Source: a virus
DNA length: 21,850 bases
Virus record (IMG/VR): IMGVR_UViG_3300025305_000165
Coordinates: 1 to 21,850 of that record
Strand: one strand, 5' to 3'
Positions 2 through 19,466 of this stretch are shown here, piece after piece. The first letter of the stretch is position 1; each line of letters begins with the position of its first letter. A program made the translations under genes and the position numbers. The notes under the pieces were generated by a model that was given only the letters and a program-made list of their open reading frames with translations, made no database searches and was not told where the DNA came from.

Positions 2-2110
2 GGTGACGACGCAGGCATAGAATCATTTTCTTTTTCTTTCGAAGGCCAGGACTACGCGACGGCGGATAAAATTTTAGTTTGCAATGCTACATATTTTTTT
101 AAAACAGTATCCGATTTCATTGCGGAATTCAAGAAAGGTCGCTATAAGTATAGTTACTCTGATTTGGCGGCATATCCTGCCGGTAGAGCCCCTTTCGTCA
201 TCAAAGCGGTTGTCGGGTGGGAACCTCCTATAAATATTCAATCTATTGTGGGGCCGCTTAAAGCAAAGGAAATTGCTAAAGCTGCCAAATCTGCAAAGCT
301 AAGCATTTTCATGAATGTTGTTAATTTTAATTATGAAGTAAACGAAGACGGCTCTTTGAAAGTTTTTGTGGAATACAGGGGGTGGCTAAACAATGCTCTT
401 TCTAATTTGAACTTTGATATATTTTTAAGCCCCGCCTCCGGTGAGAATATAGATGAACTTAAGGTAGACGTGACAAAGTATCTACGTGATCAGATGAAAG
501 AGAAGGACAAGCGCAGCAAAAAGATAAAATTGATTTTCGGGGAGGAGGAGATCCGCAAGGGTATTGGCGCCGACACTTCCACCGGGACTCTTTCATCTAT
601 GGCAAAAACTATGTTTATGTCGGCCCTCGTCAGCGCGGGCGCCGGCGGGTCTGTTAACACGACGACGCTTGATAAGGCCGCCGAGGATTCCCTTGAATCG
701 TATGTCGCAAAACGTGGACCCCGCTATAACACTAATGCCCAAACCGCCGCCGCGCAAAAAGAGAATGATGATTTTATTACAGAAGTCGCTCGACAGTTGC
801 ATCGTCAAGTTAATAGTTTACTTGAACAAGGGCAACTTGTAAATCATGATGGGCTGCTTGAAGAAATATTTAAAGAGGATTTCGTGCATAAGGTGACCAT
901 ACCGAAGAGCAGCATAGTACATTATCAGACTAAAAGTGTGAATAAAAGACTCACCCCTTCTCTTAGAAAAACGGACAAAATAATGGATAAAGATATCTCT
1001 GGGTTTACGGTACAATCTCTTAAAACGTCAGAACAACAAAAAATTGGAGATAACTTGATAAGCGCGACGAATAAAACTTTTAGGAACAGATCACGAAACA
1101 TAGATTCAAAAAGGGGCACTTTCCCCGAAGCAGGGGGGTTTGAAGGTCGATTTGGAGAGGGTGGTTCTTATAACATTCATTTTGTCACCTTTGGCGCCAT
1201 TCTGAACGCGGTCCTAAAAAGAGTTTATAGCCCGAGATCAATAATTAAAAACCCACTCTTAAAAAAATTTAAAGTAATTGTAGGACCGGCGTTTACAGAT
1301 TCACCGAGCAGTCCATTTAATGATGATACTATGTCGATTGCGGATTTGCCGGTGTCATTAGACTTATTTACTTACTGGTACCTAACCGAAATTATGGAAA
1401 GCGGGAAGGTCACTTATGGTGTTGGCAATTTTATTCAAAGCATGTTGAACTCCCTCGTGTTGCCGGCAATGGGAGCGGCTTGCCTAGACGACGAGGCGGG
1501 GGACCTCTATACGATCAAGGGGCAAGTATACAATAGTAGTTCTAGGGATACGCTGAAAAAAGGGAAGAGGTACGCAGCGATGAACATAAAATTGAAGGAA
1601 AGTATTAATACTAAAGTTCAAAATCTTACTTCTTATTATTATTTGTACATTGATTCCAAAACTACTTCAAAAGCCGTAGATAAGTTCAAAGCGGAGCTAA
1701 AATCTGGCAAGATTATACAACTTGGCACCGGATACAATAGAGGACTAACAAGAACAATTAAATTCAAAGGCAACGATATCCCATATTTTCAAGAAGCAGC
1801 GGACGCAATGTTAAACGAGAATGACAGCGAAAGCTCTGCAAGAAGGATGTTAAAATTTCACAATGCTGAAATTGAACTATTCGGCAATACGATATTCTAC
1901 CCAGGGATGATTGTGTATATCGCTCCCAACTTCCCCGGCATCAGAACACCTTTTGGGAACCCAGTAGGGTCCACCACGAGTCCCAAAAAAATCGCTTCTG
2001 CTCTTGGCATAGGAGGATATTATGTTGTTACGAAGGTAAAGAGCAGCATAGACCCAGCAGGGGGTTTTAAAACAACATTGACAGCTAATTATGAGGCAGG
2101 AGTGTCTTAA
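2..2110 (+). CDS. Virion structural protein, possible baseplate-hub-like (5' end outside window)
   Basis: The reading frame is open from the first bases of the window to TAA at 2108-2110, so the gene starts upstream. A TTG at 164 is the first nominal start inside the window, but the frame before it reads as normal protein (for example FEGQDYATADKILV), so I treat it as internal. At least 702 residues are encoded. The C-terminal part (GMIVYIAP, then GIGGYYVVTKV and a closing TTLTANYEA strand) resembles the C-terminal beta domain of phage hub/gpD-like proteins; a middle segment is rich in Ala, Gly and charged residues. No enzymatic motif is visible. The next gene overlaps its end, so the two are probably translationally coupled. 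The structural role is inferred from context and from weak pattern recall; baseplate hub is the best guess, another tail protein is the alternative. Confidence 0.5.
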   Translation, partial: GDDAGIESFSFSFEGQDYATADKILVCNATYFFKTVSDFIAEFKKGRYKYSYSDLAAYPAGRAPFVIKAVVGWEPPINIQSIVGPLKAKEIAKAAKSAKLSIFMNVVNFNYEVNEDGSLKVFVEYRGWLNNALSNLNFDIFLSPASGENIDELKVDVTKYLRDQMKEKDKRSKKIKLIFGEEEIRKGIGADTSTGTLSSMAKTMFMSALVSAGAGGSVNTTTLDKAAEDSLESYVAKRGPRYNTNAQTAAAQKENDDFITEVARQLHRQVNSLLEQGQLVNHDGLLEEIFKEDFVHKVTIPKSSIVHYQTKSVNKRLTPSLRKTDKIMDKDISGFTVQSLKTSEQQKIGDNLISATNKTFRNRSRNIDSKRGTFPEAGGFEGRFGEGGSYNIHFVTFGAILNAVLKRVYSPRSIIKNPLLKKFKVIVGPAFTDSPSSPFNDDTMSIADLPVSLDLFTYWYLTEIMESGKVTYGVGNFIQSMLNSLVLPAMGAACLDDEAGDLYTIKGQVYNSSSRDTLKKGKRYAAMNIKLKESINTKVQNLTSYYYLYIDSKTTSKAVDKFKAELKSGKIIQLGTGYNRGLTRTIKFKGNDIPYFQEAADAMLNENDSESSARRMLKFHNAEIELFGNTIFYPGMIVYIAPNFPGIRTPFGNPVGSTTSPKKIASALGIGGYYVVTKVKSSIDPAGGFKTTLTANYEAGVS

Positions 2111-2111
2111 T

Positions 2112-3344
2112 GTGGTTGATATAAAATCAAAGATGTATAAGGACGGGATGAAGGCAGGAAGTGCTTTCTTCTCTAGACAAAATGAAGAAATGGAATATCT
2201 ATTCAATAGAGATACGGATAACGTTTCTTCAATATGGGGAATTTACAGATTTTATGGCCTTGTTGACTTTAATTTCGACACAGTAAACTTAGTCGGGTCT
2301 TATCAGGACAACCTTGATAATGGATTTCTGGCCTTGACTAGTGATGGGCCAACTCCTGTATTTGTGCCAAGATTTGTTAAAAATGCGTTTGATTCCATGA
2401 CAATTTATTATAATGTAGCGAAGCAACATAACAAGGTTAGTTCTAGAGCGAATGCTTTAGTGGATTTGAATATCAAAAGAGGTTATATTAATATTACTAA
2501 TTCTCATGAAAATCACATGCAAATTTATTTTGATGCCCTCACCGAATACCTTAATTCGCGGGGGCTTATTGATAAAATAAAAGATTTTAATGAGTTTATG
2601 ACTCATTTTGCCGATTTTTCGTATCAGGTTGCTGAAGAAATACCAATAACAAGGACCGGCTTCACACGAAGTGTTTACGCGAACCCTGTCAATGGAGGCC
2701 TTGCTCTGGAAATAGAGAGCATTGATAAAGCGAATGAAGGGAGAAAAGTTAATGACTTTTATCAAAATCCGAATTTCGCTATGTTTTCAAATGTCGCTAA
2801 ACATTTTGGATTTGTAATAGATCGCGATGTTCCATGGAGGCTTATCGCAGATATCTCCTCCCCTCGAATGCATAAATTCATGAATGCAAATGATATTACT
2901 AAAGAGAGTCTTTTTGATAAGTGGTACACTAAAACGTCCCTGCTGGACCTTGATTTATTAATCAAGCATGCGGCTACATTTTATAACCATTACGTCATAA
3001 GAACCCCGCAGACAACCCGCCCTGAAGTGGTTTTTAATAATAATTGCGCCAAAAACAGCGCTTATTTCGGTGCCGCATCACCGGGGACTCTTAAGATAAA
3101 GAAATTTAAAAGATCCCTTGTTAATACCGCGAATGCAACGTCTAACTATGGACAAAAGGCATGGGTTAAGTTATATTTTAGATTAAGATTGATAGAAGAA
3201 GATATAAAAATATCGGAGACAGAGATTAGCTCACTGTTGACATCGATTTTCGCACGCAGCAAAAAGAATAATTCTATTGACATGATCCTTGCTTCCTTCT
3301 ATAGTGATCTTGAAGTAAAAAGAAGGATGGACGTAAAGGTCTAG
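2112..3344 (+). CDS. Putative virion structural protein of unknown function
   Basis: About 410 residues, no signal peptide or membrane segment, rich in Asn, Phe and Tyr, with no recognisable catalytic motif. I chose GTG at 2112 because AGGAG at 2098-2102 sits 9 bases upstream; the longer ATG at 2091 lies within the previous gene and has no ribosome-binding site. With either start it abuts or overlaps the preceding structural gene, suggesting one late transcription unit. A segment around GFVIDRDVPWRLIADI is the most distinctive part and looks like a conserved core, but I cannot name the family. The last 70 bases also carry the promoter for the next gene. It could be a tail or baseplate component; the function is not known from sequence. 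Confidence 0.55.
   Translation: MVDIKSKMYKDGMKAGSAFFSRQNEEMEYLFNRDTDNVSSIWGIYRFYGLVDFNFDTVNLVGSYQDNLDNGFLALTSDGPTPVFVPRFVKNAFDSMTIYYNVAKQHNKVSSRANALVDLNIKRGYINITNSHENHMQIYFDALTEYLNSRGLIDKIKDFNEFMTHFADFSYQVAEEIPITRTGFTRSVYANPVNGGLALEIESIDKANEGRKVNDFYQNPNFAMFSNVAKHFGFVIDRDVPWRLIADISSPRMHKFMNANDITKESLFDKWYTKTSLLDLDLLIKHAATFYNHYVIRTPQTTRPEVVFNNNCAKNSAYFGAASPGTLKIKKFKRSLVNTANATSNYGQKAWVKLYFRLRLIEEDIKISETEISSLLTSIFARSKKNNSIDMILASFYSDLEVKRRMDVKV
3277..3305 (+). promoter_or_regulatory. Sigma70-type promoter for the DNA polymerase A gene
   Basis: TTGACA at 3277-3282, exactly 17 bases, then TATAGT at 3300-3305. It lies inside the end of the upstream structural gene, about 40 bases before the polymerase start codon, so the transcript would have a leader of roughly 34 bases. 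The same -35/-10 pair with the same spacer recurs at 8764-8792 and nearly so at 5377-5405 and 15989-16017, which makes chance unlikely. Confidence 0.7.
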
Positions 3345-3345
3345 T

Positions 3346-4530
3346 ATGCTATTCCAAACGCTTGACGACAAAAACCAGTGTGTTGCGGTCTACTCGGAAG
3401 GTTCTCTCAATCTTGAGGATATTCCTGCTGGCCTCACTAAAACTTGGAATTATGCCCCTTATGTTTCCGGGGATGTAGAATACGCTAATTTATATTGCGT
3501 AGGATGCTCTTTAGATGATGTCTGCCCGCCTCGTTTGAAAGATAGGTGGGAGAGCATCAATAAGAAGTTAAAAGCCTTCCGGCGCTCATTTGGGATAGCT
3601 CTCGTTGATATGAATAATCTTTGCTTTTTTGATCTAGTTCAAGATCGGTTTTTGCTTGAATATTGCGATGTAAAGAACCAGATCACGCAGCATGTATTTG
3701 ACAACTACGAGAAGCCAAACAATTATGATTTCTTGCGAGACCTTACTGCTGTTTTACACGATATTAGATATCGAAAATTAAATATCGATATCAATGGGGT
3801 AAAGAAAATTTTTGCCAAGCCAAAGACTCGCGCGTTCCTTAAGAAGATCAATGTACTTTCGCCCTATATCAATTATGATATTGTAGGAACACGAACAGGG
3901 AGATTAACTACCAAGAAGGATTCGTTCCCTATTCTAACGATTGATAAGGATTTTAGGTCTGTCATCAAACCAAACAACGATCTCTTCATTGAATTAGATT
4001 TTAATGCTGCAGAACTGCGCACGGCCCTAGCTCTATCAGGGGTTGAGCAACCAGATCAAGATATTCACGAATGGATAGCTAAAGAAGTGTTCACCTCTGA
4101 CGAGACCCGTGATGAGATTAAGAAAAAAGTCTTTGCATGGCTATATAACCCTGTTGCGAAGAACGATACTCTAGAGCGAGTATTCCATAGAACTAAGATT
4201 ACGGATAAATATTTTAATGGCCAAGAAGTTATCACCCCCTTTGATCGACGAATTGAAGTAGATACCAGACGCGCGTTCAATTATATTGTGCAGAGCACTA
4301 CAAGCGATCTGTTCTTGCGGGTGATGATAAAAGTAGCGAACGTTTTGAAAGAGAAGAAGTCTTATGTGGCCTTCTCAGTACACGACTCGTTGGTTATCGA
4401 TTTTAGCATGGAGGATAAACATCTTCTTAATGAGATTGTCGAAGCGTTTTCAGGTACTGATTTGGCAAAATTCAAAATAAACATGAGCGTGGGTAAGAAT
4501 TACGGCTCCATGAAGACAAAGAGGCTATAA
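3346..4530 (+). CDS. polA: Family A DNA polymerase, minimal polymerase-only form
   Basis: A 394-residue family A (Pol I-like) polymerase. Motif A is seen as ELDFNAAELR with catalytic Asp218 and Glu223; upstream is the TxTGRL-type segment (residues about 182-187). The O-helix motif B keeps the spacing R255-K259-F263-Y267, matching E. coli Arg754/Lys758/Phe762/Tyr766, although the Gly after the Tyr is replaced by Asn. Motif C is SVHDS with His346-Asp347. The N-terminal about 130 residues are too short for a normal 3'-5' exonuclease domain and show no DxE motif, so proofreading is probably absent; there is no 5' nuclease domain, which is encoded separately at 7797. It starts one base after the previous stop and its stop overlaps the next ATG. 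A full C-family replicase is also present downstream, so gap filling or primer replacement is a plausible role. Confidence 0.9.
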   Translation: MLFQTLDDKNQCVAVYSEGSLNLEDIPAGLTKTWNYAPYVSGDVEYANLYCVGCSLDDVCPPRLKDRWESINKKLKAFRRSFGIALVDMNNLCFFDLVQDRFLLEYCDVKNQITQHVFDNYEKPNNYDFLRDLTAVLHDIRYRKLNIDINGVKKIFAKPKTRAFLKKINVLSPYINYDIVGTRTGRLTTKKDSFPILTIDKDFRSVIKPNNDLFIELDFNAAELRTALALSGVEQPDQDIHEWIAKEVFTSDETRDEIKKKVFAWLYNPVAKNDTLERVFHRTKITDKYFNGQEVITPFDRRIEVDTRRAFNYIVQSTTSDLFLRVMIKVANVLKEKKSYVAFSVHDSLVIDFSMEDKHLLNEIVEAFSGTDLAKFKINMSVGKNYGSMKTKRL

Positions 4531-5375
4531 TGGAAACAGTTATTGGGTTAGGAGACGCTGGATGCGCGATTGCGGAATGCTTCGGTGTATACCCACAATA
4601 TGATGTATATAAAATAAACTCTAAAAAGAGCAATGAAGAGAATTATCTTTATATCACTCCTCAAAAAACACATGAAGACTACGAAGCAAAAACAAGATTA
4701 AAAAAAGCATTTTTTGAGAAAATAAGTGGACCCATTCTCTTCGTTATAGGAGGATCGGGAGATATCTCCGGTGCTGTCTTGCGGATTCTGGAAAAGTTGA
4801 AAGCTCATCCTATCCATGTATTATATGTGAAGCCGGACACCTCTTTGTTATCGGAGACCAAAGAAAAGCAGCATAACGTAGTATTCAATGTTCTACAGCA
4901 ATACGCGAGATCGGCGCTTTTAGAGAGATTATATATTATAGAAAACTCAAAAATAGAACAGGCTCTTGGCGACGTCCCGGTTATTGGGTATCACGAGAAA
5001 ATAAATCAATTGTTGGTTTCCACAATCCATATGCTCAACGTTTGCCGAAATACGGAACCAGTGATAAACACGTTTGGAGAATCCCTTGATATATGCAGGA
5101 TTTCTTCTATCGGCCTGGTTGATATTAATAGCGGGAATACGAAGTATTTTTATGATCTCGAATACCCTAGGGAGGTCGTCCTTTATTACGCCATTAACAA
5201 CGAACGGCTGAAGACTGATGGGACACTCCTTCGTAAATTAACTACTGCGGTCAAAGAAAAAAATGATGAAAATTTACGTGCATCATTCGGGGTTTATCCT
5301 ACTGAATATGAACAGGATTACGCCTACTGTCTGGCCCATTGCTCATATATCCAGGAACAAAAAATTGGTTTATAG
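4530..5375 (+). CDS. Divergent FtsZ/tubulin-superfamily-like protein
   Basis: 281 residues. I see an N-terminal strand plus glycine loop VIGLGDAG (residues 4-11, T1-like), then a strand and loop FVIGGSGDISG (about 71-81) in the position of the tubulin GGGTGTG signature (T4). It continues as FtsZ does: helix, strand VLYVKP, a long helix, strand LYIIEN (like FtsZ ITIPN), a helix, and INTFGES at 179-185 where FtsZ has its T7 loop. The C-terminal part (SIGLVDIN to ASFGVYP and YCLAHCSYI) follows the order of the FtsZ C-terminal domain. The T7 acidic residues (NxDxxD) are not kept: the aligned positions are Phe182 and Ser185. At 281 residues it is shorter than FtsZ (about 380). It overlaps the polA stop by one base, so it is in the replication operon. 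GTP binding and filament formation are inferred; an unrelated Rossmann-like protein remains possible. Confidence 0.5.
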   Translation: METVIGLGDAGCAIAECFGVYPQYDVYKINSKKSNEENYLYITPQKTHEDYEAKTRLKKAFFEKISGPILFVIGGSGDISGAVLRILEKLKAHPIHVLYVKPDTSLLSETKEKQHNVVFNVLQQYARSALLERLYIIENSKIEQALGDVPVIGYHEKINQLLVSTIHMLNVCRNTEPVINTFGESLDICRISSIGLVDINSGNTKYFYDLEYPREVVLYYAINNERLKTDGTLLRKLTTAVKEKNDENLRASFGVYPTEYEQDYAYCLAHCSYIQEQKIGL

Positions 5376-6312: not shown

Positions 6313-7437
6313 ATGCCAAGGCGCAGCAAAAAAGAAGCTAATAGCGATTTAGGTCGATTAAGTATGGATGAAATGCGTAAAATTATTAATCGCAAAGCAG
6401 GATACGATCTGGCCTACAATTTGACACAAGATAACCCAACCCAAGTAGCGGGTTGGATACCAACCGGCTCTAGATGGCTGGACTCAATCATCTGCAAAGG
6501 CAGGATGGCGGGAATACCGATAGGTAAAATTACAGAGATTGCCGGGTTGGAATCCACGGGAAAATCATATGTTGCGGCTATGATCGCGGCAAACGCCCAG
6601 AAGCAAGATATAGATGTTATTTATTTTGACTCGGAATCGGCGATAGACCCGGAGTTCTTGTCAAAGGCTGGGTGCGATTTAGAAAAAGTGCTCTATATCC
6701 AAGCGGAGAGTGTGGAGTTCGTGCTTGAGACCATAGAAGAGTTGTTGGGTAGCAACCAAAACAAAATGTTGTTTATCTGGGACAGCCTCGCTCTGACCCC
6801 GGCAGTTACTGATATCGAGGGGGATTTCAATCCACTCTCGTCTATGGCCGTAAAACCTCGTATTCTGTCTAAGGGCATGGCAAAATTAACTATACCGCTT
6901 GCCAACGCGAAGGCCACGTTCCTGGTCCTGAACCAGCTTAAGACCAATATTACGTCTAATGTGGCTGAAGCGATGACTACTCCTTATTTCACACCGGGAG
7001 GAAAGGCCATGCACTACGCATATGACTTGCGCATATGGCTAACTGGGCGCAAGTCTAAAGCTTCGTTTGTAAAAGACGACAACGGCTTTAGAATTGGTTC
7101 GGAAGTCAAAGCAAAGCTTGAGAAATCCAAGTTTGGAACTCAAGCTCGTGAATGTACTTTTAAGATCCTGTGGGGCGATGAAGTGAGAGTACAGGATGAG
7201 GAAAGTTGGCTTGAGGCCATCAAATCTTCTGAGCATTTCGCCTCTAGGGGGCCGTGGTATTCGATTTCGTATGGCGACGGCACCGAAGAAAAGTTTCAGT
7301 CTGCTGGCTGGAATGAAAAACTAAAAGACGATAAGTTTAAGAATCGCGTTCTTGAGATCATGGAAGAAGAAATTATTCTTAAGTTCCACAATAGAACAGG
7401 AGACGCCGCAGACTTTTATAATGTTGATGCACAGTAA
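6313..7437 (+). CDS. recA: RecA/UvsX-type recombinase
   Basis: 374 residues. Walker A is GLESTGKS (residues 78-85, Lys84), the catalytic Glu segment is FDSESAIDP (Glu108, aligned with E. coli RecA Glu96) and Walker B is LFIWDS (Asp157). A Gln/Asn strand LVLNQLK follows, equivalent to the RecA NQ motif that senses ATP. The N-terminus is a short basic helix, as expected for filament contacts. The length is close to bacterial RecA (about 350) and to T4 UvsX (about 390). It would load on SSB-coated DNA for strand exchange and recombination-dependent replication. It follows ssb across the hairpin at 6236-6287 and I find no consensus promoter of its own, so it is probably read through from the ssb promoter. 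Confidence 0.92.
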   Translation: MPRRSKKEANSDLGRLSMDEMRKIINRKAGYDLAYNLTQDNPTQVAGWIPTGSRWLDSIICKGRMAGIPIGKITEIAGLESTGKSYVAAMIAANAQKQDIDVIYFDSESAIDPEFLSKAGCDLEKVLYIQAESVEFVLETIEELLGSNQNKMLFIWDSLALTPAVTDIEGDFNPLSSMAVKPRILSKGMAKLTIPLANAKATFLVLNQLKTNITSNVAEAMTTPYFTPGGKAMHYAYDLRIWLTGRKSKASFVKDDNGFRIGSEVKAKLEKSKFGTQARECTFKILWGDEVRVQDEESWLEAIKSSEHFASRGPWYSISYGDGTEEKFQSAGWNEKLKDDKFKNRVLEIMEEEIILKFHNRTGDAADFYNVDAQ

Positions 7438-7486: not shown

Positions 7487-7822
7487 ATGTTTTTAAAGGG
7501 TAAAGTTAGAGAAGTTGTTTTAGAGGCTCTGCAATATGACGCTTATAAAGCGGAAGTGTCTATAAAGTCTAGTAAAGATCGCAACATCACTGAAATCCTT
7601 GACGAAATGAGAGCCTTATGCGGAGTCACTATTGTCAATATTTCATCACCATCAAAAAGTCTTAGCGAGACATCGGAGATCACAATATGCACCCTCAAAT
7701 TCTTCTTAACGAATCCAAGTTTAAAGCTTCATTTAAACAAGCTTGCTTTATCTGCGAAGAAGATCGAAGGGACTTTGGCGTTCAAGGTGTTGCGAGTTGA
7801 AAAAATACAAGGTAAAGACTAA
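7487..7822 (+). CDS. Small protein of unknown function, possible ferredoxin-like fold
   Basis: 111 residues, no signal peptide or membrane segment. I do not recognise the family. The order of predicted elements reads strand (YKAEVSIKS), helix (ITEILDEMRAL), strand (GVTIVNIS), strand (ITICTLKFFL), helix (LKLHLNKLALSAKKI), strand (LAFKVLRVEKI), i.e. beta-alpha-beta-beta-alpha-beta, compatible with a ferredoxin-like fold. This is an eyeballed prediction. It lies between recA and the flap exonuclease; its last 26 bases overlap the exonuclease start chosen here, so they are probably translationally coupled. AGAGG at 7474-7478 precedes ATG 7487. A recombination or replication accessory role is suggested only by context. 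Confidence 0.6.
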   Translation: MFLKGKVREVVLEALQYDAYKAEVSIKSSKDRNITEILDEMRALCGVTIVNISSPSKSLSETSEITICTLKFFLTNPSLKLHLNKLALSAKKIEGTLAFKVLRVEKIQGKD

Positions 7823-8774
7823 AAGAGTATTATTTATAGATGCTCTGAACTCCTATTATCGAGCTTATATTGTAGACCCTTCCTTATCTACCAATGGACA
7901 ACCAATTGGTGGTATGAAGGGATTTTTAAAGATTTTACAAAAGCTCGTCCGTGATACAAAGCCGGATAGGATTGTTATTTGTTGGGACGGCGCCGGAGGG
8001 TCGCGGCGCAGAAAGAGTATCAATAAGAATTATAAAGAAGGGAGAAATCCTATTCGATTAAACCGCTCTATAAGGAATTTGACAGAGAATCAAGAACTCC
8101 AAAATAAAGTCTGGCAGCAAACGAGGCTTGTAGAATATTTGAGCTATATGCCAGTTTCCCAGCTAATGTTTGAGAGTATAGAGGCAGATGATTTAATAGC
8201 ATTCGCTGTTAAATTAGAAGATTATACAAATTGGCAAAAGATTGTAGTTTCAAGTGACAAGGACTTTATACAAATACTAGACAAGGAAACAGTTTTGTAC
8301 CGGCCAACCCAAGAACAAGTTCTCAATATTAACAGAGTAATTAATGAATATGGAATTCATCCTAATAACTTTGCACTAGCGAGAGCCATCGCCGGAGACA
8401 AGAATGATAATCTTCCGGGAGCGAAAGGGGTGGGCCTAGCAACGGTTAAGAAGCGTTTCCCATTTATGGAAGATGAAGAAGAGTACATGGTAAGAGACAT
8501 TATAGAACACTGTAGGAAGAACGTTGACGGTGTTAAGGCGTATTCATCAATTTTACAAGAAGAAAATCTTATTAGAGAGAACTATAAGCTAATGCAACTT
8601 CATTCCCCTAGCATTAGTGCTAGCACCAAAATGAAAATCCGATCAATTATCGGCAAAGATGATCTCATTTTTAATAAGACCGAGGTGATTAAGATGATGT
8701 CGCAGGATGGGTTCGGAGAAACTAGCTGGCTGGATCTTTTCCAGCGGTTCAACAAGATACTGGTTGACAAATAG
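7797..8774 (+). CDS. 5'-3' exonuclease / flap endonuclease (T4 RNase H-like)
   Basis: About 325 residues from TTG at 7797, chosen because AAGGTG lies 7 bases upstream and the conserved strand VLFIDALN begins about ten residues later; a longer frame from ATG 7743 would overlap the previous gene by 80 bases and adds no conserved sequence. Metal-binding acids of the FEN/Pol I 5'-nuclease family are visible: Asp15 (FIDALN), Asp64 (CWDG), Glu129-Asp131-Asp132 (EADD), Asp154 and Asp156 (SSDKDF), and Asp201/Asp204 in AGDKNDN, followed by the helix-hairpin-helix GAKGVG. It would remove RNA primers or 5' flaps and so complements the polymerase-only PolA encoded upstream. The end of the gene carries the promoter for the helicase. 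Confidence 0.88.
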   Translation: MKKYKVKTKRVLFIDALNSYYRAYIVDPSLSTNGQPIGGMKGFLKILQKLVRDTKPDRIVICWDGAGGSRRRKSINKNYKEGRNPIRLNRSIRNLTENQELQNKVWQQTRLVEYLSYMPVSQLMFESIEADDLIAFAVKLEDYTNWQKIVVSSDKDFIQILDKETVLYRPTQEQVLNINRVINEYGIHPNNFALARAIAGDKNDNLPGAKGVGLATVKKRFPFMEDEEEYMVRDIIEHCRKNVDGVKAYSSILQEENLIRENYKLMQLHSPSISASTKMKIRSIIGKDDLIFNKTEVIKMMSQDGFGETSWLDLFQRFNKILVDK

Positions 8775-8814: not shown

Positions 8815-10170
8815 TTGCAACAAGACTTTTCTCTATATGGAAAAAACTTTCAGGAGAAGCTTGCCCAGTTAATTCTGGAGGATAGACCATTCTCAGAACA
8901 GATGCAGGAAGTGCTGGACATCAAGTTCTTTGAATCAAAATACCTACAAGTATTTACAAACCTTCTTTTTGGGTATAGAAGCAAGTACAGTGTACATCCC
9001 AGCAATGAGATATTAGATTCTATCTTACGAACAGAATTGGAGGAAGAACCCGACCTTATAAAAAAGCAAGTTCGTGATTTTTTTACACGAATTCGGATAA
9101 GAGAGATAGAGGATTCCGAGTATGTCAAAGATACTTCTTTAGATTTTTGTAAAAAGCAAAAGTTAAAGGAGGCAATGATGATTTCGGTGGGGCTGTTAGA
9201 CAACTCTTCTTTTGAAGAGATTAAAAATGTCATTGATGAAGCTGTTAAGTTAGGCATTGATAATGATCATGGCCACGATTATAAGAAAGATTTCGAATTG
9301 AGGTACTTGTTTAAGGCAAGAAATCCGGTAAGCACGGGGTGGCCTCGCGTAGATAAGATAACCAAAGGTGGCTTAGGGAAAGGAGAACTGGGGGTTGTTG
9401 TCGCCCCTACTGGCGCGGGCAAAACACATGCGCTTGTTCACTTAGGAGCCTCTGCTCTAAAGGAAGGGAAGACGGTTGCTCATTACACACTAGAACTATC
9501 GGAGGAAGTAATAGGACAACGATATGATAGTTGTATCACAAGATATCCGCTTTCGGGCCTCCACGCATTTAAAGATAGAATTAAAGAAACTTGTTTAGAG
9601 ATGGACGGAGAACTTTTTATTAAAGAATATCCAACAAAATCTGCATCAACAAATACTCTACGATCTTCTCTAGATAAGTTATTGAAAAGAGAGAAAAAAG
9701 TTGATTTAATCATAGTTGATTATGCGGATATTCTCAAGCCGGTAACGAATTTTAAAGAGAAAAGGAACCAACTAGAATCTATTTATGAAGAGTTGCGAGG
9801 AATCGCAAAAGAATATGAATGTCCGATCTGGACAGCCTCCCAAACTAACAGGACTGGATTGAACCAAGCGGTGATTACTATGGAAGCTATATCGGAAGCC
9901 TTTAACAAGTGCTTTGTGTCTGATTTTATTTGTACAATTTCTCGCACTAAAGAAGATAAGGTGGCGAATACGGGCAAGATGTATGTTGCAAAAAATCGCA
10001 ATGGTCCCGATGGAATGGTCTTCCCTCTGCTCTTTGATACTTCAAATGTCAAGATAGAAATATTAGAACCGACTGATGAGACTATTGATGAGATGGAGGT
10101 AAATGAGGTCAAGAGACAACAAAGAGAAATGAAAAAAGTGTACGAACAATGGGAGGAAAGGAGCAAGTGA
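8815..10170 (+). CDS. Replicative DNA helicase, DnaB/gp41 family
   Basis: 451 residues from TTG at 8815, supported by a strong AGGAGG five bases upstream. The N-terminal about 150 residues are helical, as in the DnaB N-terminal domain. The RecA-type ATPase core follows a linker (STGWPRVDKITKGGLGKGE): Walker A APTGAGKT (197-204, Lys203), a helix with ELSEE carrying the catalytic Glu region, Walker B LIIVDYADIL (Asp302-Tyr303), and TASQTNRTG, the DnaB SQxNR-type motif. A late FICTISRT/KNRNGP segment matches the arginine-finger region, and the C-terminus is a charged helix (VKRQQREMKKVYEQW). It should form the hexamer that unwinds the fork. Its stop codon is immediately followed by the RNR ATG, indicating coupled expression. 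Confidence 0.9.
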   Translation: MQQDFSLYGKNFQEKLAQLILEDRPFSEQMQEVLDIKFFESKYLQVFTNLLFGYRSKYSVHPSNEILDSILRTELEEEPDLIKKQVRDFFTRIRIREIEDSEYVKDTSLDFCKKQKLKEAMMISVGLLDNSSFEEIKNVIDEAVKLGIDNDHGHDYKKDFELRYLFKARNPVSTGWPRVDKITKGGLGKGELGVVVAPTGAGKTHALVHLGASALKEGKTVAHYTLELSEEVIGQRYDSCITRYPLSGLHAFKDRIKETCLEMDGELFIKEYPTKSASTNTLRSSLDKLLKREKKVDLIIVDYADILKPVTNFKEKRNQLESIYEELRGIAKEYECPIWTASQTNRTGLNQAVITMEAISEAFNKCFVSDFICTISRTKEDKVANTGKMYVAKNRNGPDGMVFPLLFDTSNVKIEILEPTDETIDEMEVNEVKRQQREMKKVYEQWEERSK

Positions 10171-12597: not shown

Positions 12598-12879
12598 ATG
12601 AATTTTAGACCGGTGAACAGAATGATTTTAATTGATGTTAAATCGACAGACGAGGAAGACTCGTCAACGGTGCTTCTTCCGGAGGGGTTCAAACCCGCCG
12701 AGCAATACGGTTTCGGAAAGGTTCAATTAATAGCAAAAGATTGCAAAATTGATTTGTCCGAGGGCGATGAAATAATCTTTGAAAATTCCATGCTACAAAC
12801 CGTCTGCGTGGCAGACGAAGAGGTTAATTTATTGTTAGAGAATTATGTGCTTGCTATAACAAACGGAGAAGGAGAATAG
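12598..12879 (+). CDS. GroES-like co-chaperonin
   Basis: 93 residues, the usual GroES size. The start FRPVNRMILIDV corresponds to the GroES IRPLxDRVxV strand. A polar loop at about 16-24 (STDEEDSST) occupies the GroES mobile-loop position and is followed by VLLPEG; then FGKVQLIAKD (GxVxAVGxG), LSEGDEIIFENS (VGDxVxFxxx) and a C-terminal NYVLAI (xDILAI) complete the GroES order. The mobile loop shows no GGIVL sequence and is divergent, as in T4 gp31-type phage proteins. It probably replaces host GroES on host GroEL to fold a phage protein such as the major capsid protein. AGGAGG directly upstream gives strong initiation. Confidence 0.72.
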   Translation: MNFRPVNRMILIDVKSTDEEDSSTVLLPEGFKPAEQYGFGKVQLIAKDCKIDLSEGDEIIFENSMLQTVCVADEEVNLLLENYVLAITNGEGE

Positions 12880-14264: not shown

Positions 14265-15133
14265 TGGAGCCCGGATACCATCTCGCCGGGGTTGTCCCGG
14301 TAGCCGGACAAAAGCTGGATTTTAACATGCCATGGCATGATTGCTTAATGCCGATTGCAAAAAACTATCTTGCCATAGAAAGGTCTGTAATTGATTGCGG
14401 GTACGCGGGGTGTGAGACGATATTTGTAGTTTGCCACAACGACATGATGCCGTTGATTAGGGCGAGACTTGGAGATTATATCGAAGACCCCGCCTACGCG
14501 TATAGGAGTTTTGAAGTATTCCCGCAGGAGGTTAGAGTCAGAATCCCAATTTATTATATAGCTGTGCATCCACACGATAGAGACAAAAGGGATAGTCTTG
14601 CATGGAGCGTTTTGTATGGGGCCAAAGTAGCGAATGAAATGATAGGGAGGCTCAGTAGTTGGCTTGTTCCGAACAAGTTCTTTGCGTCCTTCCCGTATGG
14701 GGTACATAATCCGGAATTGTTGAGAGAACACAGGAGGGCGATATCTAGCCCGCAAAATTTTTCACTATCTTGGCAAGGCAAAACGGTTATTGAAGATGAG
14801 TATCTGCCTTTTACTTTTGACTACGAACAATGTTTGTATTTTATAGACAATGTTAGAGGGAAAGGCACTTCTCGTTTTGTCAATCAAGAATGGGGAGACA
14901 AAAAGGTACAGTTACCAAGGGAGGAACAATATTCCGCTCGCTTCTTTAGTTTAAGTGATGTATTCTGTGATTTAGATTTTGAGATTATTGAAGAAACGCC
15001 TTACTACTTTAACATAAGCAGTTGGGATGGATATCAAAATTATATATCCAACAAGCCGGAGGAGTTACACCGCCCTGTTAAGAGGATATTAAACCCACGC
15101 TCACTAAAAGGGATTGGAGTAGAGAATGAGTGA
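14264..15133 (+). CDS. Nucleotidyltransferase-like protein (GT-A fold suspected)
   Basis: 289 residues. The N-terminal half resembles sugar-phosphate nucleotidyltransferases in layout: first strand and loop LAGVVPVAGQ, then LMPIAKNYLAIERSV (like the LxPVxxKPxLexxi helix), AGCETIFVVC as the next strand and IRARLGD after it. A strand IPIYYIAVHPHD and a helix DSLAWSVLYGAKVAN sit where transferases carry the GTAxAv helix, and WLVPNKFFASFPYG follows. The classical GxGTRL loop and a clear metal Asp are not obvious, so the substrate is unknown and activity is uncertain. It overlaps the previous gene by one base and cysK by 8 bases. The fold is inferred by reading the pattern; the alternative is an uncharacterised phage family. 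Confidence 0.45.
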   Translation: MEPGYHLAGVVPVAGQKLDFNMPWHDCLMPIAKNYLAIERSVIDCGYAGCETIFVVCHNDMMPLIRARLGDYIEDPAYAYRSFEVFPQEVRVRIPIYYIAVHPHDRDKRDSLAWSVLYGAKVANEMIGRLSSWLVPNKFFASFPYGVHNPELLREHRRAISSPQNFSLSWQGKTVIEDEYLPFTFDYEQCLYFIDNVRGKGTSRFVNQEWGDKKVQLPREEQYSARFFSLSDVFCDLDFEIIEETPYYFNISSWDGYQNYISNKPEELHRPVKRILNPRSLKGIGVENE

Positions 15134-15992
15134 TATTTTAAATTATATCGGGGGGACGCCCTTAATTCAATTGGCTCCAAATTTATTTGCAAAACTTGAA
15201 ACATACAGCCCTACCGGCTCTATCAAAGACAGGATGACGCACTATGTTTTAACGAAGGCGGAAGAACGAGGCGAAATAAAGCCGGGGGACACTATCGTTG
15301 AGGCATCGTCGGGGAATACGGGGATCTCCTTCTCTATGTTAGGCTCCGTAAAGGGTTACAAAGTGATCATCATACTGCCAAGCAACATGAGTGAAGAGAG
15401 AAAACAAATGATGAGGCTCTTTGGAGCACAAATAATCGAAGTAGGTGAAAGTGATTTTGAGGGAGCTATTGAACTAAGGGATAAAATGGTAGAAGAAAAT
15501 GAAAACTATTTTTCTCCTAACCAATTTGCCAACCCCGATAATATTAAATGTCACGAGTGGACAACTGGTTTTGAAATAAAGAAGCAATTGATAAGTAAAG
15601 GAAAAGGAGAAATTGCCGCGATAGTATCTGGTGCCGGGACTGGTGGAACTATAATGGGAACAAAAAGGGCTCTGGAGAGGTTTGTAGATCCAATACCTAA
15701 GTTTGTAATGGTGACACCCGCCGAGGGCCGCGCACACGGGATACAGGGGATCGGGGATGGAGGAGACTATTTAGTGAACCGCGAAGAGATAGACGAAGTG
15801 ATTAGCATAACGACCGAGGAAGCCATCGAGAGAGCGAAAAAATTGGCGAGAGAGGACGGCCTTCTTGTCGGCATAAGTTCTGGGGCCAATGTGCTGGCTT
15901 CTGAACGATGGATGAAAGACAATGAATTTGAAGGAGTGGTGGTCACTTTTCTGTGTGATCGCGGGGAAAGATATTTGAGTATATTTGATTGA
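15126..15992 (+). CDS. cysK: Cysteine synthase / O-acetylserine sulfhydrylase family (PLP enzyme)
   Basis: 288 residues. Forms L-cysteine from O-acetylserine and sulfide using pyridoxal phosphate. Seen: the N-terminal IGGTPLIQL, the PLP-binding Lys34 in PTGSIKDR, the substrate loop SSGNTG (61-66), the phosphate-binding loop SGAGTGGT (about 168-175), GISSGAN (249-255, Ser251/252 near the PLP ring) and the C-terminal DRGERYLS (278-285). All core motifs are intact, so it should be active. It is slightly shorter than bacterial CysK (about 310-320). It overlaps the upstream nucleotidyltransferase-like gene by 8 bases. In a phage it is an auxiliary metabolic gene; related specificities (O-phosphoserine or cystathionine beta-synthase type) cannot be excluded. 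Confidence 0.9.
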   Translation: MSDILNYIGGTPLIQLAPNLFAKLETYSPTGSIKDRMTHYVLTKAEERGEIKPGDTIVEASSGNTGISFSMLGSVKGYKVIIILPSNMSEERKQMMRLFGAQIIEVGESDFEGAIELRDKMVEENENYFSPNQFANPDNIKCHEWTTGFEIKKQLISKGKGEIAAIVSGAGTGGTIMGTKRALERFVDPIPKFVMVTPAEGRAHGIQGIGDGGDYLVNREEIDEVISITTEEAIERAKKLAREDGLLVGISSGANVLASERWMKDNEFEGVVVTFLCDRGERYLSIFD

Positions 15993-16017: not shown

Positions 16018-16040
16018 TTAGTACGAGATTGGAGGAAGCC

Positions 16041-19000
16041 GTGGAGAGAAAAAAATCATCAATACCTTTTGTAGGACTACACGCACATAGCGTGGTTGGA
16101 TCTCCTTTCGACGCACTTGGATATCCGCAGGAACACATGGACTTCGCCTACGAGAATGGAAGTGAGGCGTTGGCTTTAACAGACCACGGTAACGCGAATG
16201 GCATGTCTTACCAGATCCTTCATGCAAGAAAAATGAAGGAGCAAGGTAAAAATTTCAAACCTATTTTTGGAGTTGAGGCATACTTTTTGCCATCGATTGA
16301 TAAATGGAAAGAAGCATATGAGAAAGCAAAAGAGGATAAAAAGGAAGCGAGAAAACTAAAAAACTCGGACAACATGTCGATTGAGAATGAAGGCGATTCT
16401 AAATCTAAAGCTAATATCATAAAGAAAAAGAATCACCTTATTCTCATCGCGCAGAATCAAGTGGGGCTTAACAATATTTTTGCACTTATCTCGAAATCAT
16501 ATGAGGGAGACAATCGCTATCGATATCCTCGCGTTGATTACAAATTATTGGAGGAACATAATGAAGGAGTTATTGCTTCGTCTGCTTGTCTTGGCGGCGT
16601 GTATGCAGGTAATTATTGGGATAATCGTGACGACGGCTCTGACGCTGTTTTAAATGCTATGAGAGAAACAACTGAACGAATGCAGGCCATCTTTGGGGAT
16701 CGATGGTACGGTGAACTTCAGTGGTTCTCTGCACCAGAGCAACACGAGTTGAATAAACATATTATTCAAATGGCAGAAGAATATAGCATGGAGTTAATAT
16801 CGACAGCCGATAGTCATTATCCAACACCTGATGCCTGGAAAGATAGAGAACTATATAAACGTCTTGGATTTTTGGGAAGAGCACAGAAACCGGAATGGAT
16901 GACAGATGAATTACCGGTTGACATAGAAGAACTTGGTATGGAGTTATTCCCAAAGAATGGAGACCAAATGTGGGAGTCTTATAAAAAATATTCTTCCATG
17001 TGTGGCATTGAATATGATGATGAATTGATATTAAATTCAATTACCAACACTCATAAGATTGCATTTGAAAGAATCGAAGACTTTATGCCGGACAGCACCG
17101 TGCGACTCCCTGGATTTGTTGTGCCGCCTGACCACACCGCAACAGGAGCACTAACAAAGTTGGCTATTGAAGGTTTAAAAAATATGAATCTTCATAAAAA
17201 ACTTAACTACGTTGATAGGCTTAAAGAGGAAATAAAAGTTATCGATGAGCGAGGATTCAGCAAATACTTCCTTACAATGAAAGCGATTGCAGACAGAGCC
17301 AATGATGTCATGCTTGCAGGACCCGGTAGAGGGAGCGCAGCAGGATCGCTATTGTCATATGTTTTAGGAATCACACAAATAGATCCTATTAAATATGATT
17401 TGCTCTTTTCACGATTTATAAGAAGAGATGCGAAGGATTATCCGGACATTGACTATGATGTTAGTGATCGAATGAAGCTTACAAACTTGTTAATAGATGA
17501 ATGGGGAGCCGATACGGTTGTTCCTATATCCAATTATAATACTTTACAACTGAGATCCTTGATTAAAGATGTCTCTAAATTCTATAATGTACCGTTCACT
17601 GAGGTGAATCCGGTTACATCTAAAATGATCCAAGAGGCTACCCCTGCGGCAAAGAAAAAGCATGGAATCAAGTCCGGCGTATATGTTCCAACTTTCGAAG
17701 AGACTATGGAATTTTCGACGACCCTCCGGAACTATCTTGATAAATATCCATTTATTAAGACTCATATCGAGGCTATATACGGCTCCGTGAGATCAATTAG
17801 TCGCCACGCGGGCGGAGTCGTCATAGGGGAACAACTAGACAAATATATGCCACTCATTAGTAATAAGGGTGTGGTGCAAACACCGTGGTCGGAGGGTCAA
17901 AATGTTCGGCACTTAGAACCTCTTGGATTTATTAAATTTGATTTCTTGGGGTTAAGCACCCTTAGAATGATTGAGGTAGCGATCGAGCATATTTTAGAAA
18001 GACATCATGGCATGAAAAATGTGACTTATAATGATATTAGAAAATATTATAATGAAACTTTGCATCCCGATGTGATTGACTTGAATGATGAAAACGTTTA
18101 TCAAAACATTTTTCATAAGGGCAATTTTGCGGGAGTATTCCAATTTACACAGGAAGGAGCGCAAGAGTTTTGTGTCAAGGCAAAACCAAAAAACATTATC
18201 GATATTTCTGCTATTACTTCTATCTACCGCCCCGGCCCTCTTGGCGCCAATGTAGATAAATCTTATGTGGAAGCAAAAGATAGTCCGGAGAATATCCATT
18301 ATATACATCCCCTGTTGAGGGAAGTGACGCAAGAAACTTATGGTTTTCTTATTTTTCAAGAACAGATTGCTTTATTGGCACACAAGTTGGGCAATAACAT
18401 TTCCCTTGATGAGGGGAACGCTCTACGAAAGTTGTTAACAAAGAAAGGTACTGGCAGCGCAGTATCGGCAAAAATTAAAATTGAAAAGAAATTTATCGAA
18501 GGTTGCATGGAGAAGGGAATTGATAAAATTAGCGCAGAGAAACTATGGGCTAACTTTGAATACTTCTCTGGATACGGTTTCAATAAAAGCCATGCGGTTT
18601 CTTATTCTGTATTGAGCTATCAATGCGCATGGCTTCTTAACTATTATCCTTCCGAGTGGGTAGCGGCATTTCTAGACCGCGAGCCCGAAGGTAGAAAAGA
18701 ACAAGCAATCAATATTGCCAAGAAGATGGGATATGAAATTCAACCGATTGATATCAATCTCTCCACAACGAAGTGGGTAATTAGTGAAGACAACAAGAGT
18801 TTGATCCAGCCATTTAATTCGATAAAAGGGTTAGGAGAGGCTGCAATAAAACAAATCATAGATAATAGGCCATTTCATACGGCGGAAGAACTTTTGTTTA
18901 ATGAAGATATATCTTATTCCAAATTAAACAAAAGAGCGCTAGACGTGCTTTGTAGATGCGGAGCTTTAGATAATCTTATCGATGAGAGATTTACTGGAGC

Positions 19001-19466
19001 CAAGCACTTCTGGGGAGCAGTTGCATGTGAAAGGCCGAAGAACAAAAAGAAATTTCTAAATAACATTGAAGCCTTCGCTTCGGAAGGAGAGTTTAGCGAT
19101 GAAGAGAGGATTAGACATATTTCCGATTTGACCGGAGTGTTCCCATTTGATATCGTTGTGAACAAAGATGTTCAGAGGAAACTACAAGAATACTGCGTCC
19201 CTCCTTTGGGAGACTGGGATGACGATCTGGAGGTCGCTTGGTTTATTCCCAGGGAGATAGTGAGAAAAAAGACAAAGAATGGTAAAGATTATTGGGTCGT
19301 TAGAGTTCTTGATCCAACTTCGACTATTACGAGTATTAAATGTTGGGGGGTTAAAAAAGAAGATGAGTTACACATTAACCGTCCCTACATGGCTAGGCTA
19401 GATTATGATGAACAATGGGGATTTTCTACGCGCTCTATCAGACATAACTTTAAACTACTCGGATAG
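16041..19466 (+). CDS. dnaE: DNA polymerase III alpha subunit (family C, DnaE type)
   Basis: About 1141 residues from GTG at 16041, chosen because GGAGG (16031-16035) lies 5 bases upstream; a TTG at 16029 would add only four residues. The N-terminal PHP domain keeps metal-ligand motifs HAH (His14/His16), TDHGN (Asp48-His49), GVEAY (Glu79), NHLIL (His132) and DSH (Asp257/His259), with a lysine/glutamate-rich insertion at about 86-131. The palm has GPGRGSAAGS, PDIDYD with catalytic Asp469 and Asp471, and FDFLGL with Asp634. Finger and tail elements include YRPGPL, GYGFNKSHA and the helix-hairpin-helix GLGEAAI; the C-terminus resembles an OB domain. The length equals bacterial DnaE (about 1160). 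It is probably the main replicase; no separate epsilon, clamp or clamp loader lies in the window. Confidence 0.95.
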   Translation: MERKKSSIPFVGLHAHSVVGSPFDALGYPQEHMDFAYENGSEALALTDHGNANGMSYQILHARKMKEQGKNFKPIFGVEAYFLPSIDKWKEAYEKAKEDKKEARKLKNSDNMSIENEGDSKSKANIIKKKNHLILIAQNQVGLNNIFALISKSYEGDNRYRYPRVDYKLLEEHNEGVIASSACLGGVYAGNYWDNRDDGSDAVLNAMRETTERMQAIFGDRWYGELQWFSAPEQHELNKHIIQMAEEYSMELISTADSHYPTPDAWKDRELYKRLGFLGRAQKPEWMTDELPVDIEELGMELFPKNGDQMWESYKKYSSMCGIEYDDELILNSITNTHKIAFERIEDFMPDSTVRLPGFVVPPDHTATGALTKLAIEGLKNMNLHKKLNYVDRLKEEIKVIDERGFSKYFLTMKAIADRANDVMLAGPGRGSAAGSLLSYVLGITQIDPIKYDLLFSRFIRRDAKDYPDIDYDVSDRMKLTNLLIDEWGADTVVPISNYNTLQLRSLIKDVSKFYNVPFTEVNPVTSKMIQEATPAAKKKHGIKSGVYVPTFEETMEFSTTLRNYLDKYPFIKTHIEAIYGSVRSISRHAGGVVIGEQLDKYMPLISNKGVVQTPWSEGQNVRHLEPLGFIKFDFLGLSTLRMIEVAIEHILERHHGMKNVTYNDIRKYYNETLHPDVIDLNDENVYQNIFHKGNFAGVFQFTQEGAQEFCVKAKPKNIIDISAITSIYRPGPLGANVDKSYVEAKDSPENIHYIHPLLREVTQETYGFLIFQEQIALLAHKLGNNISLDEGNALRKLLTKKGTGSAVSAKIKIEKKFIEGCMEKGIDKISAEKLWANFEYFSGYGFNKSHAVSYSVLSYQCAWLLNYYPSEWVAAFLDREPEGRKEQAINIAKKMGYEIQPIDINLSTTKWVISEDNKSLIQPFNSIKGLGEAAIKQIIDNRPFHTAEELLFNEDISYSKLNKRALDVLCRCGALDNLIDERFTGAKHFWGAVACERPKNKKKFLNNIEAFASEGEFSDEERIRHISDLTGVFPFDIVVNKDVQRKLQEYCVPPLGDWDDDLEVAWFIPREIVRKKTKNGKDYWVVRVLDPTSTITSIKCWGVKKEDELHINRPYMARLDYDEQWGFSTRSIRHNFKLLG

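What the first reader, a model, noticed from the sequence alone, without database searches (positions are those of the whole stretch)
4530..5375. Possible phage FtsZ/tubulin homologue inside the replication operon with a degenerate catalytic loop
Glycine loops at residues 4-11 and 74-81 and the following order of strands and helices track FtsZ closely, including the region before and after the T7 loop. The T7 acidic residues are replaced (Phe182, Ser185 where FtsZ has Asp), and the protein is only 281 residues. Known phage tubulins (PhuZ, TubZ families) position DNA or capsids; this one sits between polA and ssb, which suggests a link to replication or genome positioning. A non-hydrolysing or regulatory filament would be unusual.
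Basis: partly seen in the sequence, partly recalled or inferred. Interest (0 to 1): 0.65.

Follow-up and report, generated by a model that had tools for sequence, protein, structure and literature searches.

The report
Stripped-down tubulin in phage replication operon
A large group of uncultured T4-like phages carries a small, altered relative of the cell-division protein FtsZ (tubulin) in a fixed place among its DNA-copying genes; it seems to have lost the parts that let tubulins burn GTP, which suggests a tubulin turned into a building block of the copying machinery.

Summary
The ORF is real (4530-5375 +, 281 aa) and is a tubulin/FtsZ-superfamily protein. An AlphaFold2 model from 84 homologues (pLDDT 95.9) matches only FtsZ and TubZ among its 50 best PDB hits (E about 1e-12 to 6e-11, TM 0.62-0.73). 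Sequence searches nearly miss it.

It belongs to a large, apparently undescribed family (201 members below 90% identity). The gene lay between a family-A polymerase and a gp32-like ssb in 127 of 127 loci holding both, and in 115 of 117 members found by a motif scan not anchored on those genes, contig edges allowed for. The polymerase is probably the published divPolA1.

Loss goes beyond the T7 loop: helix H8 is absent from the model, the GAG (T3) motif and strict tubulin signature occur in 0/84, and the FtsZ Asp positions (F182, S185) are acidic in 2-3/201. But E184/D187 lie beside them, so the catalytic verdict for this protein is open.

Guanine-pocket residues N139 and N159 are both kept in 181/201 and both lost in 17/201 (5-9 changes on the tree), other pocket residues changing alongside, while Q123, R127, S128 and E52 stay.

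Best reading: a pseudo-tubulin serving as a fixed part of a replication/recombination complex. Partner and filaments are untested.

The parts
4530..5375 (+). Tubulin/FtsZ-superfamily protein, 281 aa; start codon overlaps the polA stop by one base (TAATG)
   Evidence: model pLDDT 95.9; Foldseek PDB and BFVD; family of 201 non-redundant members
4545..4568 (+). T1-like glycine loop, residues 6-13 (GLGDAGCA)
   Evidence: G6 82/84, G8 84/84, G11 75/84, C12 71/84
4749..4772 (+). Shortened T4-like phosphate loop, residues 74-81 (GGSGDISG)
   Evidence: strict [SAG]GGTG[SATG]G in 0/84 members
4896..4916 (+). Near-invariant Q(E/Q)YARS(G/A) stretch at the end of helix H4 (residues 123-129), candidate partner surface
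   Evidence: Q123 84/84, R127 84/84, S128 83/84; kept in 17/17 pocket-less members
4944..4946 (+). Asn139, aligned with FtsZ N165 (guanine contact)
5004..5006 (+). Asn159, aligned with FtsZ N186 (guanine contact at start of core helix H7)
5049..5099 (+). H7-to-S7 loop (residues 174-190, 17 residues in all 84 members) in place of T7 loop and helix H8
   Evidence: DSSP of the model
3346..4530 (+). Family-A DNA polymerase, 394 aa; homologue of the first gene of Flavobacterium phage immuto, a published divPolA1 phage
   Evidence: PMC11348598
5476..6228 (+). gp32-like single-strand DNA-binding protein
6313..7437 (+). UvsX/RecA recombinase
7743..8774 (+). 5'-3' exonuclease
8815..10170 (+). DnaB-like helicase

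Best explanation
The protein is a degenerate (pseudo-)tubulin that has been built into the replication/recombination machinery of a clade of T4-like phages. It is made together with the small family-A polymerase (start and stop codons overlap) and works as a structural subunit or adaptor that holds that polymerase and/or the ssb-UvsX module together, possibly through its conserved H4 end and H2 surface. In most members a guanine nucleotide probably still sits in the pocket as a structural or switch ligand; canonical GTP-driven treadmilling is unlikely. Shown (by prediction and comparison): fold, operon position, family-wide loop losses, concerted loss of pocket residues. Inferred: nucleotide binding, weak or absent hydrolysis, adaptor role. 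Not known: the binding partner and whether it forms filaments.
For: Fold: AlphaFold2 pLDDT 95.9, pTM 0.92; the 50 best PDB hits are all FtsZ or TubZ; best viral hit is a phage protein named FtsZ. Place: polA-tubulin-ssb in 127/127 loci holding both flanking genes; in a scan by the QEYARSG motif, 83 of 117 members have both neighbours, 32 run to a contig edge on one side, 2 lack one neighbour. The gene starts within 15 bases of, or overlapping, the polA stop in most members. Degenerate site: no GAG in the T3 region (0/84), strict tubulin signature 0/84, no H8 in the model; FtsZ Asp positions acidic in 2 and 3 of 201. Pocket: N139 and N159 both present in 181, both absent in 17, of 201 (Fisher 6e-22, not corrected for kinship); among 140 columns the best trackers of the loss are 159, 10, 154, 138, 102 and 77, all in or beside the pocket loops; at least 5 and up to 9 changes on the tree; Q123, R127, S128, E52 and L84 unchanged in 17/17. 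The published divPolA1 is reported to lack exonuclease residues and part of its thumb (PMC11348598), so a helper subunit is plausible.
Against: No direct evidence of contact with polymerase, ssb or any partner; co-location may only reflect timing of expression. Related phages with a similar polymerase-ssb operon but no detectable tubulin exist (immuto, LR756508, Mel-JY01), so such a module can work without it. Profile-profile scores against small FtsZ/PhuZ alignments are weak. E184/D187 could still serve as T7 acids. Independent-pair tests on well-supported branches have too few pairs for significance (4 pairs). Loops were assigned from alignment and secondary structure; model coordinates could not be inspected.
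Confidence: 0.5

Rival explanations
1. A true cytomotive phage tubulin like PhuZ or TubZ: it forms GTP-dependent filaments that position replicating phage DNA.
For: Same superfamily fold; guanine-pocket residues kept in 181/201; E184/D187 could act as T7 acids; gene is among DNA replication genes.
Against: T3 GAG motif and strict T4 signature absent (0/84), H8 absent from the model, no T7-region acid position above about 69% acidic; 17/201 members have lost the pocket residues but keep the gene.
Confidence: 0.15
2. A processivity partner of the family-A polymerase: the tubulin fold clamps or steadies the thumb-truncated divPolA1 on DNA.
For: Start/stop overlap with polA in many members; divPolA1 reported with truncated thumb and inactivated exonuclease; no T4-type clamp (PF02916, T4 control positive) or bacterial beta clamp (PF00712) detected in the large contigs of the clade searched.
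Against: immuto has this type of polymerase without a detectable tubulin; diverged clamps may escape HMMs; contigs may be incomplete.
Confidence: 0.18
3. A decoy that joins or caps host FtsZ protofilaments and blocks host cell division.
For: Truncated FtsZ-like protein lacking the T7/H8 face that the next subunit needs; phage inhibitors of FtsZ are known (own knowledge: lambda Kil, T7 gp0.4).
Against: Host-takeover genes are usually small, early and patchy (own knowledge); this gene keeps one slot in a replication operon across proteins as low as 22% identical; pocket losses do not fit an FtsZ-mimicking face.
Confidence: 0.07
4. A Rossmann-type NAD(P)- or nucleotide-binding enzyme only superficially like tubulin.
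For: Weak Pfam hits to TrkA_N in 15/84 members (best 0.0025) against Tubulin in 8/84 (best 0.011); GxGxxG motif.
Against: Foldseek ranks FtsZ/TubZ for all 50 best solved structures over nearly the whole length.
Confidence: 0.03

Closest known systems
FtsZ (Staphylococcus aureus 5h5h and others)
   Same: Whole-length fold, TMq 0.62-0.73; T1 glycine loop; Asn pair of the guanine pocket (N165/N186 in E. coli numbering)
   Different: 11-15% identity; shorter; lacks GAG T3 motif, full T4 signature, H8, and acids at FtsZ's T7 Asp positions; sits in a phage replication operon
TubZ (plasmid/phage partition tubulin, e.g. 4ei8)
   Same: Fold (TMq 0.64 for 4ei8); borne by mobile elements
   Different: TubZ is a GTPase that forms dynamic filaments for DNA partition (literature); no partition genes recognised here, loops degenerate
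PhuZ (phiKZ-type phage tubulin)
   Same: Phage-encoded tubulin fold; N-terminal profile match E 5.6e-5 for a single comparison
   Different: Weaker structural match (Noxifer PhuZ E 3.6e-5, TMq 0.52); PhuZ phages are jumbo nucleus-forming phages, these carry T4 gp23 capsid
A0A6J5RW92, 'FtsZ Cell division GTPase', uncultured Caudovirales phage
   Same: Best viral structural match (E 1.1e-12, TMq 0.76, 18% identity)
   Different: 452 residues; its genome context could not be examined here
divPolA1 phages (PMC11348598)
   Same: Same kind of polymerase-led replication operon; second, regular polymerase near a groES/groEL gene, as in this window (dnaE and Cpn10)
   Different: The paper's text does not mention tubulin or FtsZ; immuto lacks the gene

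Membership tests
Tubulin/FtsZ superfamily | N-terminal GTPase-domain fold, core helix H7, C-terminal domain | tested here: met
   Model with pLDDT 95.9; top 50 PDB hits all FtsZ/TubZ
Tubulin/FtsZ superfamily | Tubulin signature [SAG]GGTG[SA]G (T4 loop) | tested here: not met
   0/84 members; loop shortened to GG(S/A)G. This lowers the claim of a working GTPase, not of the fold
FtsZ | GAG-containing T3 loop | tested here: not met
   0/84 in residues 36-60; present in 11/11 FtsZ controls
FtsZ | T7 loop NxDxxD with catalytic Asp | tested here: inconclusive
   Aligned positions acidic in 2-3/201, but acid at 187 in 138/201; motif found in 10/11 FtsZ controls
FtsZ | Guanine contacts N165/F182/N186 (E. 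coli numbering) | tested here: met
   N139 and N159 in 181/201; Tyr, Phe or His at 155 in most. By alignment only
PhuZ/TubZ | GTP-dependent dynamic filaments | not testable with these tools
   needs purified protein
PhuZ | Sequence membership of PhuZ or Tubulin families | tested here: not met
   No Pfam or PHROG family reached for this protein; no tblastn match in 50,697 phage records that include PhuZ phages
divPolA1 phages | Divergent family-A polymerase heading an ssb-recA-exonuclease-helicase operon, plus a regular polymerase elsewhere | tested here: met
   Homology to immuto gp001, gene order, dnaE plus groES in window; exonuclease and thumb features not re-examined here

The most novel reading that the evidence does not exclude
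A tubulin-superfamily protein has become an obligate, non-cytoskeletal subunit of a DNA replisome, possibly the processivity partner of a thumb-truncated polymerase, and in several lineages has dispensed with its nucleotide pocket altogether.
Probability: 0.3. Interest if true: 0.88.

Novelty: new variant of a known kind. Interest (0 to 1): 0.68.

Why it matters
The well-studied tubulin relatives are cytoskeletal GTPases. A family that keeps the fold and one fixed slot in a replication operon, but lacks several nucleotide-handling loops and repeatedly loses the pocket, would show a tubulin turned into a structural part of DNA replication. The family is large in uncultured T4-like phages and is missed by Pfam and PHROGs, so it is a readily testable gap in phage biology, and the pocket-less members are natural controls for what the nucleotide does.

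Tried and rejected
AlphaFold2 on six close homologues gave a poor model (pLDDT 47); it was not used. Single-sequence Pfam, PHROG and PDB sequence searches gave nothing significant. Named phages: no tblastn match for three members. hhalign against small FtsZ and PhuZ alignments gave weak scores (best E about 5e-5), so homology rests on structure. I first took the T7 acids as plainly lost; the E184/D187 pair made me lower that to inconclusive for this protein. Most FtsZ hits in the phage collection look like bacterial DNA in phage records and served only as FtsZ controls. LR796625, MK892584 and MK892766, genomes of the divPolA1 paper, are not held. The paper library holds open-licence papers only, so absence of earlier reports is not proof of novelty.

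Full report
Observation. The window is an IMG/VR viral fragment of 21,850 bases. The ORF at 4530-5375 (+) encodes 281 residues and begins on the last base of the polA stop codon. Upstream is a 394-aa family-A polymerase, downstream gp32-like ssb, UvsX, 5'-3' exonuclease, DnaB-like helicase and ribonucleotide reductase; further on lie Cpn10 (groES), a PALP-type enzyme and a DnaE-type polymerase.

Identity. Sequence tools hardly see it: no significant Pfam, PHROG or PDB match for the protein itself; among 84 homologues Pfam Tubulin is hit weakly by 8 (best 0.011) and TrkA_N by 15 (best 0.0025). An alignment of 84 homologues gave an AlphaFold2 model with pLDDT 95.9 and pTM 0.92. Its 50 best PDB hits are all FtsZ or TubZ (E about 1e-12 to 6e-11, TMq 0.62-0.73, 11-17% identity); the best viral hit is a phage protein named FtsZ. 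Superfamily membership is therefore taken as shown by predicted structure.

Family and context. Scans anchored on the polymerase and the ssb yielded 159 loci, some from the same contigs; in all 127 that hold both genes the tubulin lies between them. In L146 other genes (a methyltransferase among them) lie upstream of ssb and the tubulin is farther off on the contig. Pairwise identity falls to 22%. Six large contigs all carry T4 gp23 capsid protein and one family copy each; five of them carry a DnaE-type polymerase. The polymerase resembles gp001 of Flavobacterium phage immuto, a phage of the published divPolA1 group, which has a second regular polymerase near groES/groEL (PMC11348598). Immuto, Mel-JY01 and LR756508 lack a detectable tubulin.

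Degenerate site. By HMM alignment, N139, H155 and N159 fall on E. coli FtsZ N165, F182 and N186. Counting on from N159, FtsZ D209 and D212 fall on F182 and S185, acidic in 2 and 3 of 201 members; but E184 and D187 are close by, 187 being acidic in 138/201. The loop from H7 to S7 is 17 residues in 84/84 and the model shows no H8. GAG in the T3 region and the strict T4 signature are absent from 84/84; FtsZ controls have both. FtsZ residue roles are from general knowledge.

Pocket co-loss. In 201 members below 90% identity, N139 and N159 are both present in 181, both absent in 17, N139 alone absent in 3. Of 140 columns, those best tracking the loss are 159, 10, 154, 138, 102 and 77, from the T1, T4, T5 and T6 loops and H7. 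Residue 77 in the phosphate loop is acidic in 11/17 pocket-less members and 4/184 others. The tree, built without the main pocket columns, needs 9 changes, at least 5 on well-supported branches (an 84-row tree gave 9 and 4). Fisher values are not corrected for kinship and the independent-pair tests are too small to reach significance. Q123, R127, S128, E52 and L84 are unchanged in 17/17. Reading (inference): the pocket binds a ligand in most members, several lineages gave it up, and the rest of the protein is kept for something else.

Mechanism. The most economical account is a pseudo-tubulin subunit of the replication/recombination module. A processivity role for the polymerase is possible: no T4-type clamp (T4 as positive control) or beta clamp was found in the large contigs, though diverged clamps could be missed. 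PhuZ-like positioning, host FtsZ interference and a Rossmann enzyme are less likely.

Novelty. No held paper reports this family; the library is limited. I rate it a new variant of a known kind: an apparently undescribed, degenerate tubulin family with a fixed replication context.

Noticed in passing
window 16029-19466 and 12598-12879: A DnaE-type polymerase III alpha (PHP, alpha, finger, HHH domains) and a Cpn10 (groES) gene in a phage fragment that also has a family-A polymerase; fits the divPolA1 group's second polymerase near chaperonin genes.
   Followed up: partly
window 15126-15992: PALP-type PLP enzyme (cysteine-synthase-like), a possible auxiliary metabolic gene.
   Followed up: no
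window 2091-3344 and 164-2110: Two large ORFs upstream of polA with no significant Pfam or PHROG match, conserved in the close relatives (about 49-63% identity outside the identical copy).
   Followed up: no
L023 7167-7835 and 7839-8018; G002 and G003: Tubulin gene split in L023, and stop codons inside the matched stretch in two large contigs; frameshift, sequencing error or a shorter C-terminus not distinguished.
   Followed up: no
L146 561-3636, L157 108-2188: Methyltransferase and other genes directly upstream of ssb; in L146 the tubulin lies farther off on the contig, in L157 (7.5 kb) none was found.
   Followed up: partly
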